Part shown: positions 3,986 through 50,029 of the stretch, one piece after another | Position numbering within the stretch: position 1 is the first letter of the stretch | Layout: each line of letters begins with the position of its first letter | NCBI GenBank assembly: GCA_003342815.1 | Contig: PTEX01000163.1 | Coordinates: 543,714 to 607,713 of the forward strand | From: Eudromia elegans | Taxonomy: Eukaryota; Chordata; Aves; Tinamiformes; Tinamidae | Direction: 5' to 3' | Length of the DNA: 64,000 nucleotides | Notes under the pieces: generated by a model | The model's input: the letters and a program-made list of their open reading frames with translations, nothing else | Databases searched by the model: none | What the model was told of the DNA's origin: nothing | Translations under genes and position numbers: made by a program

Positions 3986-4058
3986 GCCTCTGCGGAGGCC
4001 CCCCCACGCGCCCCACGCCGCGCTGTGCCCCCGTCCCGTGCTGCCCAGTACAGCCAGG

Positions 4059-4142
4059 ACTACAACTCCCGGCGCCCCTTGCGCGGCGCGTGCTGGGCGG
4101 TGGGGCCGGGTGGCAGGCGCAAAGCACGCTGGGAAATGTAGT
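4059..4142. promoter_or_regulatory. Inverted pair of ZNF143/STAF-type sites
   Basis: Positions 4059-4070 read actacaactccc on the plus strand. Positions 4124-4142 read, on the minus strand, actacatttcccagcgtgc. Both resemble the known ZNF143 (STAF) element ACTACAATTCCCAGCATGC. The second is the better match. The pair faces inward about 200-285 bases before the TXLNG ATG. Confidence 0.65.
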
Positions 4143-4343
4143 TCTTCTTCCCGCGCGGCGTGCACGCCAGCCCCGCATCCCCTCCCGCGCCGGCGGCGGC
4201 ACGGCGAGCGCGGTGCCACCCGCGCACACGTGGTACGCCGCACCGCGCGCCTATTGGCTGAGAGCGGAAGCAGGGGCGGGCCCGCGGGGAGAGCTTCCGG
4301 AGCGCCCCGGCGCGGCAGCTTGTTTGGATGCTGCCGTCACATC

Positions 4344-23969
<19,626 letters not shown>

Positions 23970-31602: not shown

Positions 31603-38744
<7,142 letters not shown>

Positions 38745-39070
38745 TTTGGGCGAGCGCGCGAGGCGGCAACAGCGGCCGGGCAACGGCAGCAGAGGTGGCG
38801 CAGACGCGGCACCGTCCGGAACCCGCGCCTCGCGCCGCCCCGCGCCGCCCCGCGCATGCGCCGCCCCGCGCACGCCTCCCGCGCCGGCCAATGAGGAGGC
38901 GGGGAGGGCTGCGCGCGCGCTCCGCGCACGCGGGGCGGCGGCGGCGGCGCCTCCCCCCACCGCCGGGGTGGGGGCACGTAACGGTCCGCGGTGATCGTTG
39001 GAAGCCACTTACCACCATGAGGGGGTCCCGGGGGCTCCGGGCCTTTCCTGGCTATGGGCGGCTGCCCCGG

Positions 39071-42000
39071 CGAAAAATTAGCAATTAAATAAAAAAGTGC
39101 CAAGATCGGCGTGGGCACGGCTGTGCCGCGAAGTGGGGTTTTAAGTAAAATAAACCAGTAGTGGTGATGCTGCCACTGAGAGAGTTAGCTATTTATTTAT
39201 TTATTTAAGTGCGTTTGAAGGCGTTTCAGAGAACCCCGCCATCCCATCGCGGAAGCTGCCTCAGAGGCAAGCTGAGCTCCCCCAGCGGAGATACACTCAA
39301 GGGGCACACGTCAAATTTGGTTGTTTTTGTTATTGTTACTGCACCTCTAAGGCAGACGTGCTGAGTGTGGAACCACTGGTTGCGCAGTGGAAACTGGGGG
39401 AAAGAGCTGATAATGGGGCTTAACTCGTCAGTTTTTGTGTACAAACCAGTGCAGTCAAGAAACAGGAAAATGAAAACTAGTGGACTATTTTTACTGAAAT
39501 GCCCCAAATATGTGCTCCCTTTCACCAAACAGAAATGGTAATTTAGTTGTAAAAAGAGAAAAGCACGTCTGAAAGAGAAAAGAACAGCTAAAAAAACCCC
39601 AAAAAACACCTCTCATCAGGAATAAAATATATGTAAAATGAGTAGAGGTAGCTACGTTTGTGAAACTGCTGGGTTAGAGCAGAAAAGCAGAAGGGGACGA
39701 AGAAGGGAGAGCAGGGTGCTGTGCCAGGCTGCAGTGCGCACTTCGGCAGTCTGCACAGGAGGTGGCACTACCTCGACACCGGACAGCTACGTGCAGGCTG
39801 CAGGGCAAGGCCACACAAGGAGCGAAGAAATCTCCGCTCCTCTGCACAAGATGCAAGGCCTGGTTGCAGAAGTTTGAGGGTTTTTTTCATTTTTTTTTTT
39901 CCCTTCGCTCTGTATTGGTTACACCCTGGACTGGTCCGTGCATATGATTCCGGGGCGTTGGTGGTGAAATGGAGATTTCCTGGAGATCCAGTAGTTATCA
40001 GGCAGCCTCTACACATCTGAAACAAACTTAGGCGCAACAGCAAAGAATGGTGGTAGACATTATTTAGTATGTCTCAAATAATAAGCCCTAAATTGCACTG
40101 CAGATTAACTCAGATACTAACCCCTTTTTATAGCCCCAAAAATATAGATAAAAATGGTTACAGAGACCACTGCTAAATACTTTTCAACAGTGGGGCCGAC
40201 GATATGTTGTTTTATTTTCTACAAGAAAGACCTGTTTGGCAGATTTTTTAGTTGCAATAAAAGCATGCAAATAAACACAACTGCATTTTTGAATTCCCAC
40301 TCACATAATAACGGTCAGAATTACAACAGTTTTAAATGTTAGAGTCTGCAGTACCATCTGATTAATGTGGCGAGTGACACAATTTCTTGTGTCAGAGTTG
40401 CATAGAGATAGGTGTATGGCTTCAACATACACCTCACACCAAATCTTTCACCTCTCTCTCCTTTCAACTACTGCTAACCAAAAAGCCATTTGGTTTAACT
40501 GCTTTCTAACAAGCTTAAGTAAATAGCACTTGACTCATAAAACAGCCTTAACCAGAGCAGATCTCGAGGACAGGTAATAACATATTCTGACAGAATAGTG
40601 GAAATAAAGGCAGGTAGGGGTGAGACTAAATTCAACCAACTCCTTTGGTCTCAAACCTGCGAAGCAGAATTCTGTATTTTAGGGTCTTGAGCGCCAAAAT
40701 AGGCTGGAGTTGGCTCTGTAGTGCAGCTCCTTGTGCTCAGCAGGCGACAGAGTGGCAAAAGAGAAGGGAATTCACAGCCAAGTGAGAGGCAACATTTTTA
40801 TATTCACTCTGTGAGCAACTCTTCATGAGCTGAGCCATCTGTGGTCCATGTCCTGTTTTTTTGGAGAAGGAACGCAGTTATGGAAAATGTCTAGAGAAGG
40901 CTGGGGAGCCAAGGATAGTAATAGCAGCCAGAGGTTGTAGTATGGGAATTGGAGGATAGGCAGCCAGCTCCTCAAACAGGAAGTGTTTGTAATGAACCAT
41001 TCCTATATATGCCAGAGCGTTGAAAGCAGAAATGTTCTGGTGAAGCAGCCAAATTATTTATTTTAGCCATGTATTTATCTTCTTGAACCTGCACAAACCA
41101 GAATTGTATTAAAGCTATGTAATAAAAAGCTCTGCATTTATTGAAAAAGAGAATTTTGTTGAATGTGGAATAATCCGCTACATAGGAATGCACTAATGGG
41201 TATGTTAACACAGACTATGGCCTTGATCATACAAGATAAGTTAGAAACTTGCTTTTGGCAACGCTTAATACTTGTTTTGATATCTGCTGCCAAGTACGTG
41301 TCTAAACCTACAAAGTGCTGTGGCATTCCTAAAATGATAGGAGAGTGAAGATTGAGCTTTTCAGAGCCTGCGTGTCGTTACAGAGTGTTGATCTGCTAAA
41401 ATGCCAAGACTGAACAAAAGAAATCTCTCTCAGGCTTCTTGACTCGAAGTGAGTTCTGTTAGCTCTCACTGAAGCTTAATTATGTGGCTCCTTGAAAGAT
41501 TCAGTGCTTGGGTGGGATATTTTGTGTGTGTTTCACTTAAACAGCAGCATTGTTTTGGCAGTGCTTGCCTGGAACATGGTTGACAAAGTGTGATTTATTT
41601 TTGGAGAATGGTAAGCAAAATTATCTTTCAATGATGTCTTGTAGGGCTTGATTAAACTAGGAATTAAGAGAGACATTCTCCCCATTGCCAATTTCAGAAG
41701 ACTCATTATAGACCCTGCAAGTTAATTTGTGTTTTAGTGGTCTGTGAGGAGCACTACCAGTCTTGGTGAACAAAATCTGTTGCACCTGTTTATCACAGTA
41801 TTCTATAAGTGACCTGTGCCTTTGTCTTTGCCATCATTAGCATTTATACTTGCACACAGCCAGATTTTCTTTTAATTTACATATAAGCACACCAATAATC
41901 CTGCTGTTAAGTGTTTTTCACTCATCAGGATTGCCATGGAAAAGGCAGTTTTCAAACATTACAGCTATCAAAGAATGCATACCATCCATTTAAGGCTGGC

Positions 42001-42189
42001 TATTTGCAATTCGTCAGCGTCATTCGTATCTGTGACCAAACATTTAAAGGATATCCTTCGATTCTAGCACTTTGTCATGGAAATAATTATTGAAGGCCAT
42101 TGTTCATCACATTCAGTATGTGTAAAATGGATCATAAATCAGTTGTGAGGTACAACTGTGACTTGAATCATAAGCTACATTTTATTAAG
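39071..42189. other. Gene-free region upstream of RBBP7
   Basis: Contains a short (ATTT)n run at 39191-39206 and a T-rich run near 39880-39900. I recognise no exon or transposon. A transcript divergent from the RBBP7 island is possible but has no support here. Confidence 0.5.
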
Positions 42190-43096
42190 GCAGACTCCTT
42201 TCAGGTAGTATAGAGACTGACAAGGTATCTGTTGAGCCTTGTCTTCTCCAAACTAAATAACCCCAGCTGTCCCTGCTGCTCCTCATAAGGTCTGTGCTCC
42301 AGCACCTTCACCAGCTTCGTCATCCTTCTTTGGACATGCTCCAGCACCTCAGTGTCTTTCTTGTAGTGAGGAGACAAAGACTGAACACAGTATTCAAGAT
42401 GCGGCCTCACCAGTGCTGAGTACGGGGGGACAATCACTTCGCTAGTCCTGCTGGCTACGCTGTTTCTGACACAAGCCAGGAGGCCATTGGCCTTCTTGGC
42501 CACCTGGGCACACTGCTGGCTCACGTTCAGCTATCTGTTGACCAGCACTCCCAATTCCTTATTTGTCACACAGCTCTCCAGCCACTGCCCCAAGCCTGTA
42601 GCGCTGCATGGGGTTGTTGTGACTGAAGTGCAGGAGTGGGCACTTGGCCTTGTTGAACCTCTGCCCATCAATCCAGCCTGTCCAGATCTCTCCATAAAGC
42701 CTTCCTTCCCTCAAGCAGACAAACTCTTCCTCACAGCTTGGTGTCATATTCCAATTTGCTGAGGGTGCCCTCAGTCACTGCATCCTGCTCATTGATAAAA
42801 ATATTAAAGAGGATCAGATCCGTGGGGAACACCGCTTGTGACCGGACGTCAGCTGTATTTAACTCCATTCACCATCACTGCATGGGCCCGGATAGCTGGT
42901 CAGTTTTCACCTTGTGAAGTGTCCACCTCTAAGCCATGACCTGCCAAGTTTTCAAGAAGAAGGCAGTGTGCGACTGTGGCAAAGGCCTTACGGAAGTCTA
43001 AGTAGACAACATCACAGCCTTTCTCTAATCCATGAGGCAGGTCACCTGGTCATAGAAAGAGACTGAGTTGGTGAGGCAGGACCTGCCTTTCATGAA
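42190..43096 (-). mobile_element. CR1 LINE ORF2 fragment, antisense
   Basis: About 900 bases of CR1 reverse-transcriptase gene on the minus strand. At 42201-42524 a frame reads [20 protein letters not shown] and [15 protein letters not shown], the C-terminal RT region. Further 5' of the element (plus 42.78-43.09 kb) the plus strand shows the complement of the usual CR1 sequence around ggggaacaccgcttgtgacc, then gtctaagtagacaacatcac and caggacctgcctttcatgaa. It is broken by frame changes, lacks its 3' UTR at 42190, and is cut off at 43096 exactly where the tandem array starts. Confidence 0.9.
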
Positions 43097-46000
43097 GTCA
43101 CAAGCAGAGCCGGCAGCCTGGGCCTCACACTGCACAATGAGGCACAGAGGCCATAGTGATGCGACAAGTACAGGCAGCATCACTGACCTTGCACTACCCA
43201 AATAGGCACAACGCCCACAGTGATGACACAAGCTCAACAGTCAGCATAGGCCTTATGCTGCTCAATGAGGCACAAAGTTCATTGGAACATCACAAACACA
43301 GCTGGCACCATAGGATTCCCACTACCCAGTGATGCACAGAGACCACAGCAATGCCGCAAGCACCGTCAGCAGCATTGGCCAGATACTGGTCAGTGAGGCA
43401 CAGAGGCCATAGTGAAGTCACAAGCACAGTGAGCATCATTGGCTTCATGTTGTTCAATGAGGTACAGAGATCATGATGATGTTACAAGCAGACACTTGTC
43501 TCCTTTGCCAGACACTGTTCAAAGAGGCACAGAGGCCATAGTGGTGGCACAAGCACAGCCAGCAGCATTGGTCTCACACTGACTGGTGAGTCACAGAGGT
43601 AATAGTAATGTCACAAGCACACTATGCATCATAGGTCTCACACTGCCCAATGAGGCACAGAAACAGCAGTAACATCACAGGCATCACCAGCAACATAGGT
43701 TTCACACAGTGCACTAAGGCACAGAGGCCACAGTGATGTCACAATCACAGCCAACAGTATTGGCCTCTCTCTGCCTAGAGAAGCACAGAGCCATTAGGGA
43801 CATTAAAAGCACAGTTGGCTGCATTGTTCTCATGCTGCCCAATGAGGCACAGAGTCACAGAGGTGTCACAAGCACAGCCAGCAACATTGTGCTCGCATTG
43901 CCCAATGAGGCATAGATGCAAGTGCAACATCACAAATACACCAAGCAGGAGCGGCCTCACGTTTCTCACTGAGGCACAGAGTCCACAGTGACATCACAAG
44001 CACAGCCGGCAACACTGACTTCGCACAGCTCAGTGAGGCAGAGACCACAGTCACATCACAAGTAGAGTTGGCAGCATTGGCCTCACACTGCCCAGTGAGA
44101 CACAGAAGCCACAGTGACATCACACGCATAGCCAGGATCGTTGGCCTCATACTGCCCAATGAGATCCAGAGGCCATAGTCACATCACAAGTACAACCTGT
44201 AACTTTGGCCTCATGCTGCCCTGTGAGGCACAGAAGCAATAGAAATATCACAAGCACAGCAAGCAACATAAATCTCAAACTGCTGAATGAAGTACAGAGG
44301 CTGTAGTGAAGTCACAAGTACAGATGGCCCCACTGGCCTCACACTGTCCTGTTAGGCACAGAGACCATAGTGACATGACAAGCACACCACACATTTTCGA
44401 CCTCACAATGCCAAATGGGGCACAGAAGTCATGGTGACATCACAGGAACAGCTGGCAGGATCAACGTCGTACTCCCCAGTGAGCCATAGAGGCTTGAGTG
44501 ACATCAGAAGTACAACAGGCAGCACTGGCCTCACACTCTCCAGTGATGCTCTGAGTGAACAGTCATGTCACAGGCACAGCCAGCAGTGCCAGCCTCACAC
44601 TTCCAAAAGAAGCACAAAGGCCATAGCGATGTCACAAGTACAGCCGATGGAATCGGCCACCCACTGCCCAGTGAGGCACAGAGTCCATGGTGATGTCACA
44701 AGCATAGCCAGCAGCATTGGCTTCACACTTACCAATGAAGCACAGAGTCAACAGACATGTCACAACTGCAGCAAGCAGTTTTGGCATCTCTCTGGACAAT
44801 GAGTCCATAGTGACATCACAAACACAGGCAGCAACAACAGCTTCACACTGCTCAAAGAGGCACAGAGGCCGTAGCTATGTCACACATACAGTTGACAGCA
44901 CTGTCCTCACACTGTCCAATTAGGCACAGAGGCCACAGTGACATCAGAAGCACAGCTGGGTTCATTGACCTCAAATTGCCCAAGGAGGCACAGAGACCAT
45001 AGTGACATGACAAGCACAGCCAGTATCATCAGCCTCACACAGCCCAAAGGGGCAGAGAAGTCATAGTGACATTACAAGCACAGCCAGCACGATCAGCCTC
45101 AAGCTGTTCAATGAGCCATAGAGGCCTGAGTGACATCAGAAGCACAGCAGGCAGCATTGGCCTCACATTCCCCAGTAATGCACAGAGTCGAGTCATGTGA
45201 CAATCAAAGACAGTAGCGTCAGCTTCGCACTTCCAAACGAAGCGCAAAGACCACAGTGATGTCACAAGCACAGCCAACAGAACTGAGTTCACATTGCCCA
45301 ATGAGGCAGGGAGGCCATAGTGAGGTCACAAGCAGAGCCGGTAGCACTGGCCTTGTGCTGCCCAATGAGGCGTAGAGGCCTGAGTCACGTCAGAAGCACA
45401 GCAGGTAGTATTGGCGTCACACACCCCAATGACGCATGGCGGCCGTATTGATGTCACAAGCACCCCATGCATCATTGGCTTCACACTGCCAATGAGGCAC
45501 TAAGAGTCCTGTTACAAGCACAGTGAGTAGCATCACCCACACACTTCCAAATAAAGCACAAAGACCACAGTGATGTCACAAGCACAGTCAATAGAATTGG
45601 CCTCCTGTTGCTCAATGAGGAACAGAGGCCACGGTGACATCACAAGCAAACTGTGCATAATTGGCCTCACACTTCCCAGTGAAGCATAGAGGCAATAACA
45701 ACATCACAAGCACAGCCAGCAGCATTCGCCAGATACTACCCAATGAGGCACAGAGGCCACAGTGACATCACAAACACTCTGGGCAGCACAGACTTCATGC
45801 TTCCCAATGAGGCACAGAGTTCCTGGTGACATCACAAGTACAGCCATGAGCAGTGGTCTGATAGTGCCCAATGAGATACAGAGACCTGGGTGATGTCACT
45901 AGCCCACCCAGCAGTAGTAGCCAGTCACTGCCCGATGAGGCACAGAGGGCACAGTGATGTCACAAGCACAGCTGGCAGCATTAACCTCACCCTGGGCAAT

Positions 46001-48140
46001 GAGGCACTGAAGAAGTAGTGACGTCACAAACATACCAGGCAGCAAGCCTTATGTTTCCCAGTGAGTCACAGAGCCCATAGTGACGTCACAAGCAGAGTAG
46101 ACAGGATTGGCCTCACACCGCCCAAGGAGGCCTAAAGGCTATAGTGACATCACAACCATAATTATGGCATTGATATCCAACTGCCCTATGAAGCATAAAG
46201 ATCATAGTGACGTCACAAACACAGACATTAGCCTTGGCCAGACACTGGAAAATGCGGCACAGAAACAACAGTGATGTCAGAATCACACTGGGCACCACTG
46301 GCCTCCCACTGCCCAAGGAGGCACAGAAGCTATAGATACATCAGAAGCACTGCCAGTAACATAGGCCTGATAATCCCCCATGGGACATAGAGGCTGTAGA
46401 GAAATCACAAGCACAGCTGGCAGCATTGGCCTCACACTGCTGAATGAGGCACAGAGACCAGAGTGATGTCACAAGCACAGTCGGCATCATTTTCCAAAAA
46501 CTGTCTAATGAGTCACAGAAGCAATACAGAAGTCACAGACACAGTGGGCACCACTGGCCGCATGCTGCCCAACAAGGCATGGAAGGAACAGAAAAGTCAC
46601 CAGCACCGCAGGCAGCATAGGCATCACACTGCTCAATCAGGCACAGTGGCCATAGTGATGACACAAGAACTGGCCCCAATGGCCTCACCCTGACTCTCAA
46701 AGAGTCAAGAGTCATGTCACAAGCACAGCAGCACAGTAGCATCAGCCTCACACTTCCAAATGAAGCACCAAGTCTGTAGTGATGTCACTAGCCCACCTGG
46801 CAGCAGCAGCCAGACACTGTCCAGTGAGGCACAGAGGCCAAAGTGGCGTCACTAGCACAGCCAGCAGCATTAGTCTCACCCTGGGCAATGAGACACAGAG
46901 ACAATTGTGACCTCGCAAACACAGTCAGCAACATTAGCCTCACACTGCCCAGTGAGGCACAGAGTCAGGAGTCTTGTTACAAGCACAACCAGTAACATCA
47001 GTCTCACACTTCCAAATGAAGCATGAAGTCAGTAGTTATGTCACTAGCACAGCCGGCAGCACTGGTCTCACACTGCCCAGTGAGGCACAGAAGCAATAGT
47101 GACATCACAAACACACCAGGCAGCACTGACCACATGCTGCCCAATGAGAAACAGAGGCCACAGTGATGTCACAAGTACACCAGGCAGCACTGGCCAAACA
47201 CTGCTCAATGAGGCACAGAGACAATAGTGACGTCACAAGCACATCCGGCAGCATTCACCAGACAATGAATTTGGTGCTACTCAGTCAGGCACAGAGGCCA
47301 TGCTGACATCACAAACAGTCCAGGCAGCACTCACCTCACACTTCCCAATGAGACATAGAGTTCATAGTGACATCACAAGCATACCCATGAGCAGTGGTCT
47401 GTCAGTGCCCAATGGGGTACAGACACCACGGTGATGTCACTAACCCATCCAGCAGTAGTAGCCAGTCACTGCCCAATGGGCCACAGAGGGCACGGTGATG
47501 TCACAAGCACAGCCGGCAGCATTAGCCACACCCTGGGCAATGAGACACGAAGGGAATTGTGACGTCACAAACACACCAGGCAGCATTGGCCTCACACTGC
47601 CCAATGAGACACAAGGCAATTGTGACGTCTTAAGCACGGCTGAAGGCATTGGCCGGACCCTGTCCAGCAATAGTGATGCTACAAACACACTGGGCAGCAC
47701 CAGCTTCATGTTTCCCATGAACTGTCTTCATACTCCTGCATGAGGCACAGAGTCCACCGTGACGTCAGAAGCACAGTCGGCAGCACTGACTTCATGCTGC
47801 TCAATGAGGCAGAGACCACAGTGAAGTCACAAGTACTGCCGGCAGTTTTGGCCTCACACTCCCCAGTGAGGCACAGAGGTCACAGTTACGTCACACACAC
47901 AGATGGCAGATTTGGTCTTACAGTGCCCAGTGAGGCACAGAGTTAAGAATCAAGTGCAAGCGCAGCCAGCAGCATTGGCATCCTGCTGGCTAACGATGCG
48001 CAAAGGCCATTGTGACATCAGAAGCACAGCAAGTATCGTTTGCCAGACACTGCACAATGAGCACAAAGGCCACAGTGACGTCACAAGAACAGCCGGCAGC
48101 ATTGGCCTCACACTCTCCAGGGAGGCAGAGAAGCCATAGC
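43097..48140. repeat. 64-bp minisatellite array with a CRE-like core, about 75-80 units
   Basis: Consecutive copies of ggcacagagg-like sequence start at 43141, 43205, 43269, 43333 and 43397, exactly 64 bases apart. The period holds with small indels to about 48140. A typical unit in order is: ggcacagaggccacag, then tgaygtcacaagcacag or tgacatcacaagcacag, then ccagcagcattggcctcac, then actgcccaatga. Copies differ from each other at many sites, so the array is old or loosely homogenised. Since 64 is not a multiple of three, frames rotate and the minus-strand ORFs (repeated CLIGQCEANAA-like peptides) are by-products. I do not recognise the unit as a named avian satellite. Confidence 0.95.
46019..48083. 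promoter_or_regulatory. Seven perfect CRE palindromes (TGACGTCA) in the array
   Basis: TGACGTCA is present at 46019-46026, 46081-46088, 46208-46215, 47228-47235, 47560-47567, 47760-47767 and 48076-48083. This is the full CREB/ATF consensus. In most other units the same position reads TGATGTCA or TGACATCA. Binding in vivo is not shown by sequence. Confidence 0.7.
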
Positions 48141-50029
48141 ATCTGCAGCCACAGCCAATGTCCATCCATTACATGTTTGGGTTTGCCTAGAGATTATGAC
48201 CCCTGCAGCATAAATCTCACCCAAGTTGTACCCTGCCATTGCACAACGTTTGTCCTGTAGCAGTGATTTGTCTCTTCTTCTCCATCTTTGAGATGCAATT
48301 TGGACTCCATCTAACACATATCCAGTATGTTTCTTGTGGTTTGTTTCCACATAGGAAGCTGAGCTTGTGTCATGGCTCTGAGAGCATCCACAGGCCTTGC
48401 ATCTCCTGCCCAAGGGCAATTGATTCTCAACCTGAGACCACCACCATGGCACTAAGTCCAAAATAATTTTCTGTCCCACTGAATATTTTCCTGTTGTTTG
48501 TTACAGGCATGGTAGCATTCCCTCAGTGCCTTGATCTGCTGGGCTATTCGTGTGCTCTGCAGCATTTGCTTATCATTTTATGTGCATTTTCCAATAATTC
48601 ATATAGAATTTTGGATAAATTCTCTGAGTCATAGGTAACAGCATTTGTGTAGCTGGCTTGATATACTTTTATTGATTTTACACAGAATAATGGAACTGAT
48701 TGAATTATGGGAGGCAAGGGTATTTGTCCATTTTTTTTTACATGCCATTTGTGAAGCAGTAGTATAACAGATGCTGTTTTGCAAGCTACAAATTCCCAGG
48801 AAGCTGTTGGGTGTGCTCACATCATGTATTTGCTTGGAGTCCTGCAGTATGGACAGACTGTTTCCCATAGTGGAGTCTGAAGACCTATAGGGATACCAAA
48901 GGAGAAGAAAAAGACTATTTTAGCCTGCAGAAAATGCTTTGGCTTTTAGATGGAAATAGAAGAACTGCAAAATTTTACAGCAGTCTTTTTCTTTTTTTTT
49001 TCTTTTTTTTTCTTTTTTTTTGTCCCTGAAAGAATAAGTGCTTAAATTCATGCCAACAGTGATTTCAATAAGATGGAAGGAGACATCTCATCTCCAAGGC
49101 TCCCAACCTTTGGCTCAGTTCAGTGAAGTTCCTCACTGCATGTTACCTTGGCCTTTTCCCTGGGGATCTCAGAGGAATTTGGGGAGCTTGAATGGGGTAG
49201 CTTCAAGGCCATACCTGAGACACAGGGATCAGAGGAGACTGTAATCCATTTTTCAGTCAGGTGGGAGGAAGTCAAGGCAAACTGCTGCACTCAGCAGTGA
49301 GCTGGATCTTCACCAACACAGGAAAGCCGTCTATGAGTGAATACAGGTACCAAAATAAATGAGAAATGTTTATTATCATTCATTTCTTTTGTGTCTTCCA
49401 CCTTAGGGCTGCAGTTCTTCAGTGAACGAAACCAGTTTCTGCTCTTGCCTTGTAATCTTTGAGAATGCCCCTTCTCACATGAGCTACTTGACCTCCTTTT
49501 TCATGGACTTCTGTTAGGTCACCATATGCTTTTTTTCTCTGTTCTTCACTGATTCTTTGGAGACTTTAAGCAATTAATAGCAGCGTTATCCACAAGGTTT
49601 TGGGTATTTCAGCAGTGAATCCTCTGAGACAAGAACTGTGCCAAGCTGCTTTTGCACACTGATCAGCTTCTGTGGCATTGAAGATCTTTCTTTGTTTTCC
49701 TTGATTTACTCAGGCTTTATGGCAGATAACCCTCAGGTGCAATCTTGGGAAGCTCTAGAGATCTTAAATTCTATATCTGCCGTTCTTTCTGGATGCTGAA
49801 AACCACAGTGCTGTACAGTGTACTGCACTGAGGTTCATATGGTCAGTGGGGAACTGAAGCATGCTTCTAGTCCAGGTGTATTTCTTTTTTGGAGGAGTTC
49901 GTTTTCAGCCAGATCATCAGGCTGAGCATACTCACTATGTATGTGACTTCCAGAGTCTCTAAATCTGGCACAAAGGGGAACACAGCCCTGCAAGAGCAGG
50001 AATGGCACCACTGAGCATCTGATTTCACA
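48141..50029. other. Gene-free region after the array
   Basis: Holds a (T)8C-type run at about 48988-49021. A minus-strand reading frame extends from the last array unit to about 48465 without a recognised match. Confidence 0.5.
48988..49021 (+). repeat. T-rich simple repeat
   Basis: Blocks of eight to nine T separated by single C bases. Confidence 0.85.

What the first reader, a model, noticed from the sequence alone, without database searches (positions are those of the whole stretch)
43097..48140. A 5-kb field of CRE-like sites built from a 64-bp tandem unit
Each unit places an eight-base CREB/ATF-type site (TGACGTCA or a one-base variant) at the same position, followed by caagcac. Around 75-80 such sites in one block, in phase every 64 bp, is a striking density. 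It could act as an enhancer, a sink for bZIP factors, or simply be a minisatellite whose founder contained a CRE. I know no named avian satellite with this unit.
Basis: partly seen in the sequence, partly recalled or inferred. Interest (0 to 1): 0.75.

Follow-up and report, generated by a model that had tools for sequence, protein, structure and literature searches.

The report
Decaying 64-bp satellite with CRE motif
A 5-kb stretch upstream of a common gene, probably in a bird, is an old, worn copy of a small repeat family scattered through the genome; its cAMP-response-like sites look inherited from the repeat's founder and have mostly decayed, so it looks ordinary rather than a dense enhancer.

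Summary
The array is real: 79 full 64-bp units at 43093-48139. The claim of 75-80 sites that are TGACGTCA or a one-base variant is overstated: in phase, 7 of 79 are perfect, 37 of 79 are one base off and 35 of 79 are two or more off. The centre of the site reads CG in 11 of 79 units, TG in 29, CA in 27 and TA in 1. That is the signature of methyl-CpG decay, and the unit's second CpG has the same 11 of 79 left. The unit is not unique. Ten other places found in the same 944-Mb genome carry it (a lower bound), from one partial unit to about 46, and one branch has TGACCTCA instead of the CRE. The array begins where a CR1-type LINE copy is cut off, and 5 of 22 array ends lie within 60 bp of such LINE pieces. 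Best reading: an old, dispersed satellite whose CRE was inherited from its founder and then eroded. Selection for bZIP binding is not shown; occupancy could not be tested. One result cuts the other way: all seven perfect sites lie in the right half.

The parts
43093..48139 (+). tandem array, 79 full units of 64 bp, consensus TGACGTCACAAGCACAGCCGGCAGCATTGGCCTCACACTGCCCAATGAGGCACAGAGGCCATAG
42195..43096 (-). truncated CR1-type LINE copy (antisense) whose 5' truncated end abuts the array; the name CR1 is by recall
   Evidence: 39 other scored copies, homology ends at window 43094-43102; 72-78% identical to five fetched copies
46019..48083 (+). stretch holding all 7 perfect in-phase TGACGTCA sites (46019, 46081, 46208, 47228, 47560, 47760, 48076)
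45699..46018 (+). block of about five units with a diverged copy at 47228-47559 (24 units away)
   Evidence: three-unit runs at this distance 78-87% identical, best unit pair 94%
47228..47559 (+). second copy of that block
35062..35226 (-). RBBP7 exon; the array lies upstream of this gene
   Evidence: PDB chain 7m3x_A, E 1.4e-30
38001..39000 (.). G+C-rich stretch (0.615), probable RBBP7 promoter region; first exon not mapped
   Evidence: inference

Best explanation
The block is one old array of an apparently unnamed, low-copy, dispersed 64-bp satellite family. Shown: the unit recurs at no fewer than 11 places in this genome (this one included), from one partial unit to 79. Inferred: the founder of this branch happened to carry TGACGTCA. 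The array grew by duplication of single units and multi-unit blocks (unequal exchange or slippage), homogenisation then stopped, and the units drifted to about 67% identity with each other. The CpG in the CRE was methylated in the germ line and decayed to TG or CA like any other CpG. Any CREB/ATF binding today would be incidental and mostly weak.
For: The same unit at ten further places in the genome (units shown); the consensus sequences of the eight places with three or more usable units are 75-92% alike. CRE centre CG 11, TG 29, CA 27, TA 1 of 79; if the two sides had mutated independently, 11 TA would be expected. At non-CpG sites C to T is 13.5% and G to A 14.2%. The second CpG is also retained in 11 of 79, with 43 TG or CA. 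Adjacent units are no more alike than the average pair, 67% each, which points to old, ended homogenisation; a 24-unit-apart block copy remains. The sister branch has TGACCTCA. Rfam finds nothing at gathering threshold in 38000-50000. PMC4992247 (passages) reports many small satellite families interspersed along chicken chromosome arms.
Against: The six non-CpG columns of the CRE are conserved at 88.8% against 79.1% for the 56 columns outside the CRE; base-matched random columns reach this with p = 0.018, uncorrected. All 7 perfect sites and 10 of 11 CG-keeping sites lie in the right half, while non-CpG identity is the same in both halves (Fisher p 0.005 and 0.003; halves chosen after looking). 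Local undermethylation or selection on the right half would also give this. The second CpG is a loose control: 11 of 79 units have AG there, so its founder state is less sure. The array sits about 4 kb from the G+C-rich region of RBBP7.
Confidence: 0.85

Rival explanations
1. The array, or its right half, is a cis-regulatory cluster: many weak and seven perfect CREs recruit CREB/ATF and tune RBBP7 or a neighbour.
For: In-phase sites; non-CpG CRE columns somewhat better conserved (p 0.018 uncorrected); perfect sites confined to the right half; TG variants can be functional CREs (PMC1796609).
Against: CpG in the CRE is kept no better than the other CpG; the conserved block runs on past the CRE (columns 64 to about 16); only 11 of 79 half-sites intact; CpG observed/expected 0.20, not island-like.
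Confidence: 0.06
2. The array is a sink that titrates bZIP factors away from other sites.
For: Number of related sites in one block.
Against: Seven perfect sites in one 5-kb array in a 944-Mb genome is few for titration (inference); most sites are altered forms, the commonest of them of reduced affinity (PMC1796609).
Confidence: 0.02
3. Compatible with the best explanation: the family was spread by CR1-type LINE retrotransposition, as chimeras of satellite RNA and truncated LINE RNA, so arrays sit next to truncated LINE ends.
For: 5 of 22 array ends within 60 bp of a LINE piece against 0.2 in random draws, 0 of 4000 draws reaching 5. In the window the LINE stops where the array starts. At 4 of these 5 ends it is the LINE's 5' side that faces the array. 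A beetle satellite sits in the 5' UTR of a CR1 element and retrotransposition was proposed for its spread (PMC3411249 abstract).
Against: With a 10-bp limit only 1 of 22 ends count (P 0.06), 2 of 22 with 30 bp (P 0.007). The 60-bp limit and the L022 array start were set after looking. Array strand relative to the LINE is not constant (L021 differs from the window, L022 and L030), and at L019 the LINE's 3' side faces the array. Target-site duplications were not tested. The unit itself is not LINE sequence.
Confidence: 0.25
4. The unit is an MHC-class-II-like X2-Y module (CRE plus a CCAAT box about two helical turns away), repeated in tandem.
For: The consensus has ATTGG 17 bp after the CRE and CCAAT 18 bp before the next CRE (consensus); the spacing in MHC promoters is recalled, not fetched.
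Against: Exact ATTGG in 18 of 79, exact CCAAT in 19 of 79, CRE within one mismatch plus both in 4 of 79.
Confidence: 0.01

Closest known systems
Small interspersed satellite families of chicken chromosome arms (PMC4992247, passages seen)
   Same: Tandem units over 60 bp, many small families on chromosome arms outside centromeres
   Different: No sequence comparison with that set was possible; whether this unit is among them is unknown
TCAST-like euchromatic satellite arrays of Tribolium castaneum (PMC3411249, abstract and opening seen)
   Same: Short dispersed arrays near genes, association with a CR1 element, proposed regulatory role
   Different: No sequence comparison made; TCAST is a major pericentromeric satellite (35% of that genome), while this family is known only from 11 places found here
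Canonical CRE and its TG/CA variants in vertebrates (PMC1796609, abstract and passages seen)
   Same: TGACGTCA decaying to TGATGTCA and TGACATCA with very few TA, outside a CpG island
   Different: Those are sites near gene starts; these are inherited copies of one founder site in a tandem array

Membership tests
Tandem satellite/minisatellite array | Head-to-tail copies of one unit | tested here: met
   79 units
Dispersed satellite family | Same unit at unlinked places in the genome | tested here: met
   Ten further places on nine other contigs; lower bound
Named avian satellite (Dfam/Repbase) | Sequence match to a library entry | not testable with these tools
   No such library held; four stretches of the unit found in 0 papers
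Functional CRE cluster (CREB/ATF target) | CpG-containing TGACGTCA or TGACG half-site kept in most units | tested here: not met
   7 of 79 perfect, 11 of 79 with a half-site
Functional CRE cluster (CREB/ATF target) | CRE conserved above the rest of the unit | tested here: inconclusive
   p 0.018 uncorrected, conserved block wider than the CRE; CpG no better kept than the other CpG; perfect sites clustered in the right half
Functional CRE cluster (CREB/ATF target) | Factor occupancy or open chromatin | not testable with these tools
   No ChIP or ATAC data available
Part of a CR1-type LINE | Unit is LINE sequence | tested here: not met
   Doubled consensus against parts of five LINE copies: best E 0.5

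The most novel reading that the evidence does not exclude
A dispersed avian satellite that carries a CRE flanked by opposed CCAAT boxes was spread by CR1-type LINE retrotransposition, and some of its arrays (this one's right half, and the CpG-rich array L020) still act as mobile bZIP/NF-Y regulatory modules.
Probability: 0.05. Interest if true: 0.65.

Novelty: new member of a known kind. Interest (0 to 1): 0.27.

Why it matters
It is a clean case of how a tandem repeat multiplies a transcription-factor motif and how CpG decay then removes it, giving 79 parallel outcomes from what looks like one founder site. If arrays with intact sites proved to be bound, it would show satellites seeding CREs near genes. 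As it stands, it mainly warns against counting motif copies in satellites as regulatory density.

Tried and rejected
CRE count as stated: rejected, 44 of 79 in-phase sites within one base, not 75-80. Coding array: 64 is not a multiple of three; a few open frames overlap the array and were not pursued. RNA family: none at gathering threshold in 38000-50000. Unit as LINE sequence: rejected. DNA hairpin: the two consensus units fold only slightly better than shuffles, z -0.9 and -1.1. One transposon carrying all arrays: flanks of the window array and six loci, arrays masked, shared only pieces that match the LINE-type repeats; 300-bp flanks of all 11 places added one 39-bp match between L028 and L023 that was not explained. 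Pfam on three LINE fragments found no reverse transcriptase, so the LINE call rests on high copy number and end points, on reverse-transcriptase-like frames in fetched copies recognised by recall, and on recall of CR1. MHC X-Y module: 4 of 79 units. Literature seen as listings only: minisatellite-CREB-bird (five papers, none on this by title and abstract start), chicken repeat names, MHC spacing, satellite decoys, CR1 and satellites, CRE methylation. Unit strings: 0 papers; avian satellitome with 64 bp: 0 papers.

Full report
Observation. The array is real and well above chance. TRF finds period 64 over 43093-48139 in two overlapping rows, and wrap-around alignment divides it into 79 full units with mean identity 79% to the consensus. 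The octamer TGACGTCA occurs 7 times in the array and nowhere else in the 64 kb. The stricter count does not match the finding: in phase, 7 of 79 are perfect, 37 of 79 have one mismatch and 35 of 79 have two or more.

Why the CRE looks like an inheritance. The two bases at its centre are CG in 11, TG in 29, CA in 27 and TA in 1 of 79 units; the other 11 are AG (7), AA, GG, CC and a gap. If the two positions mutated independently, 11 TA would be expected. A CpG that loses one side stops being a CpG, so this pattern is what methyl-CpG decay gives. Ordinary C to T and G to A in the same units run at 13.5% and 14.2%. The unit's other CpG, at position 19, is also kept in 11 of 79, though its founder state is less sure. 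CpG observed/expected in the array is 0.20, against 0.18 over 48.2-64 kb and 0.43 over 38.9-43.0 kb, and 0.23 and 0.05 in the 1 kb to the left and right. PMC1796609 (abstract and passages) describes the same decay of vertebrate CREs outside CpG islands, and says the TG form is functional but of lower affinity, so weak binding is not excluded.

Selection test. The non-CpG CRE columns are 88.8% conserved, the 56 columns outside the CRE 79.1%. Base-matched random columns reach this with p = 0.018, uncorrected. The best eight-base windows start at 64, 3, 4 and 2, ahead of 1, so the conserved block runs from 64 to about 16 and is not the CRE alone. Against my reading: all 7 perfect sites and 10 of 11 CG-keeping sites are in the right half, although non-CpG identity is equal in both halves (0.812 and 0.808); the other CpG shows 4 and 7. 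The split into halves was made after looking.

Family. Three genome searches with consensus units, together with the first with a window stretch, found ten other places, so at least 11 with this one: L019 to L024 and L028 to L031, on nine other contigs. The tool scores only its best candidates, so this is a lower bound. The CRE centre is CG in 5 of 6 units at L020, 4 of 7 at L021, 1 of 9 at L019 (5 TG, 2 CA), 1 of 5 at L022 and 1 of 1 at L023, but CC (TGACCTCA) is the commonest form at L024 (20 of 35), L028 (4 of 7) and L030 (3 of 5) and in the one unit counted at L031; L029 is a partial unit without the octamer (gapped octamers left out). The CRE is therefore mainly a property of one branch of the family. 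L024 is a second long array, 46 units in one alignment, its last ones poor, and 39 after dropping gapped units in a slightly shorter stretch.

Growth and age. Neighbouring units are no more alike (67%) than the average pair; a block copied 24 units away stands out. Mean K2P distance to the consensus without CpG columns is 0.23. At a recalled avian neutral rate near 2e-9 per site and year that would be about 100 million years, a rough guess that ignores later homogenisation.

LINE neighbours. The left flank is a dispersed repeat with 223 first-look candidates, 40 of them scored; in all 39 scored copies other than the window's own, the match ends at query base 245-253, which is window 43094-43102, so the LINE is cut off where the array starts. 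Five fetched copies align with it at 72-78%; three of them (L036, L037, L040) carry frames that I recognise by recall as reverse transcriptase. The name CR1 is by recall; Pfam was negative on three short fragments. Across the 11 places, 5 of 22 array ends lie within 60 bp of such LINE pieces, against 0.2 in random draws from the same loci and none of 4000 draws reaching 5. With 10 bp it is 1 of 22 (P 0.06) and with 30 bp 2 of 22 (P 0.007). The limit was set after looking, and one array start (L022) was moved. At 4 of the 5 ends the LINE's 5' side faces the array, at L019 its 3' side; at L019 another alignment puts the repeat directly at the array end. In 38900-43092 the only array-like match is one weak hit inside the LINE itself (score 26.5; none in four shuffles), so I see no array beyond the LINE. 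A beetle satellite with a CR1 link is a printed parallel (PMC3411249 abstract). I leave the cause open.

Setting. TXLNG exons on the plus strand (Pfam Taxilin at three places, two above and one below the curated cut-off; the gene name is by recall) and RBBP7 on the minus strand place the array upstream of RBBP7, about 4 kb beyond a G+C-rich stretch at 38-39 kb.

Verdict. An ordinary kind of thing with a tidy natural history: an old dispersed satellite, not a demonstrated CRE enhancer.

Noticed in passing
L020, locus bases 4513-4913 (contig C91): A short sister array that keeps CG in the CRE in 5 of 6 units and has CpG observed/expected 0.46; the best place to test whether the family binds bZIP factors.
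   Followed up: partly
L024 (G000:C86:1622501-1632400, minus strand): A second long array of the family (39 to 46 units by alignment) with TGACCTCA as the commonest form in place of the CRE.
   Followed up: partly
window 43093-48139, consensus positions 26-46: The inter-locus consensus holds ATTGGCC and GGCCAAT as an inverted repeat around a 7-base centre, so the unit has two opposed CCAAT-type motifs (the window's own consensus has GCCCAAT on the right).
   Followed up: partly
window 46019-48083: All seven perfect TGACGTCA sites lie in the right half of the array although both halves are equally diverged elsewhere.
   Followed up: partly
L019, L021, L022, L030 array ends: One array end at each of these lies within 60 bp of a CR1-type LINE piece, as in the window.
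   Followed up: partly
window 4001-5000: A G+C-rich stretch (0.78) upstream of the TXLNG exons, probably its promoter region.
   Followed up: no
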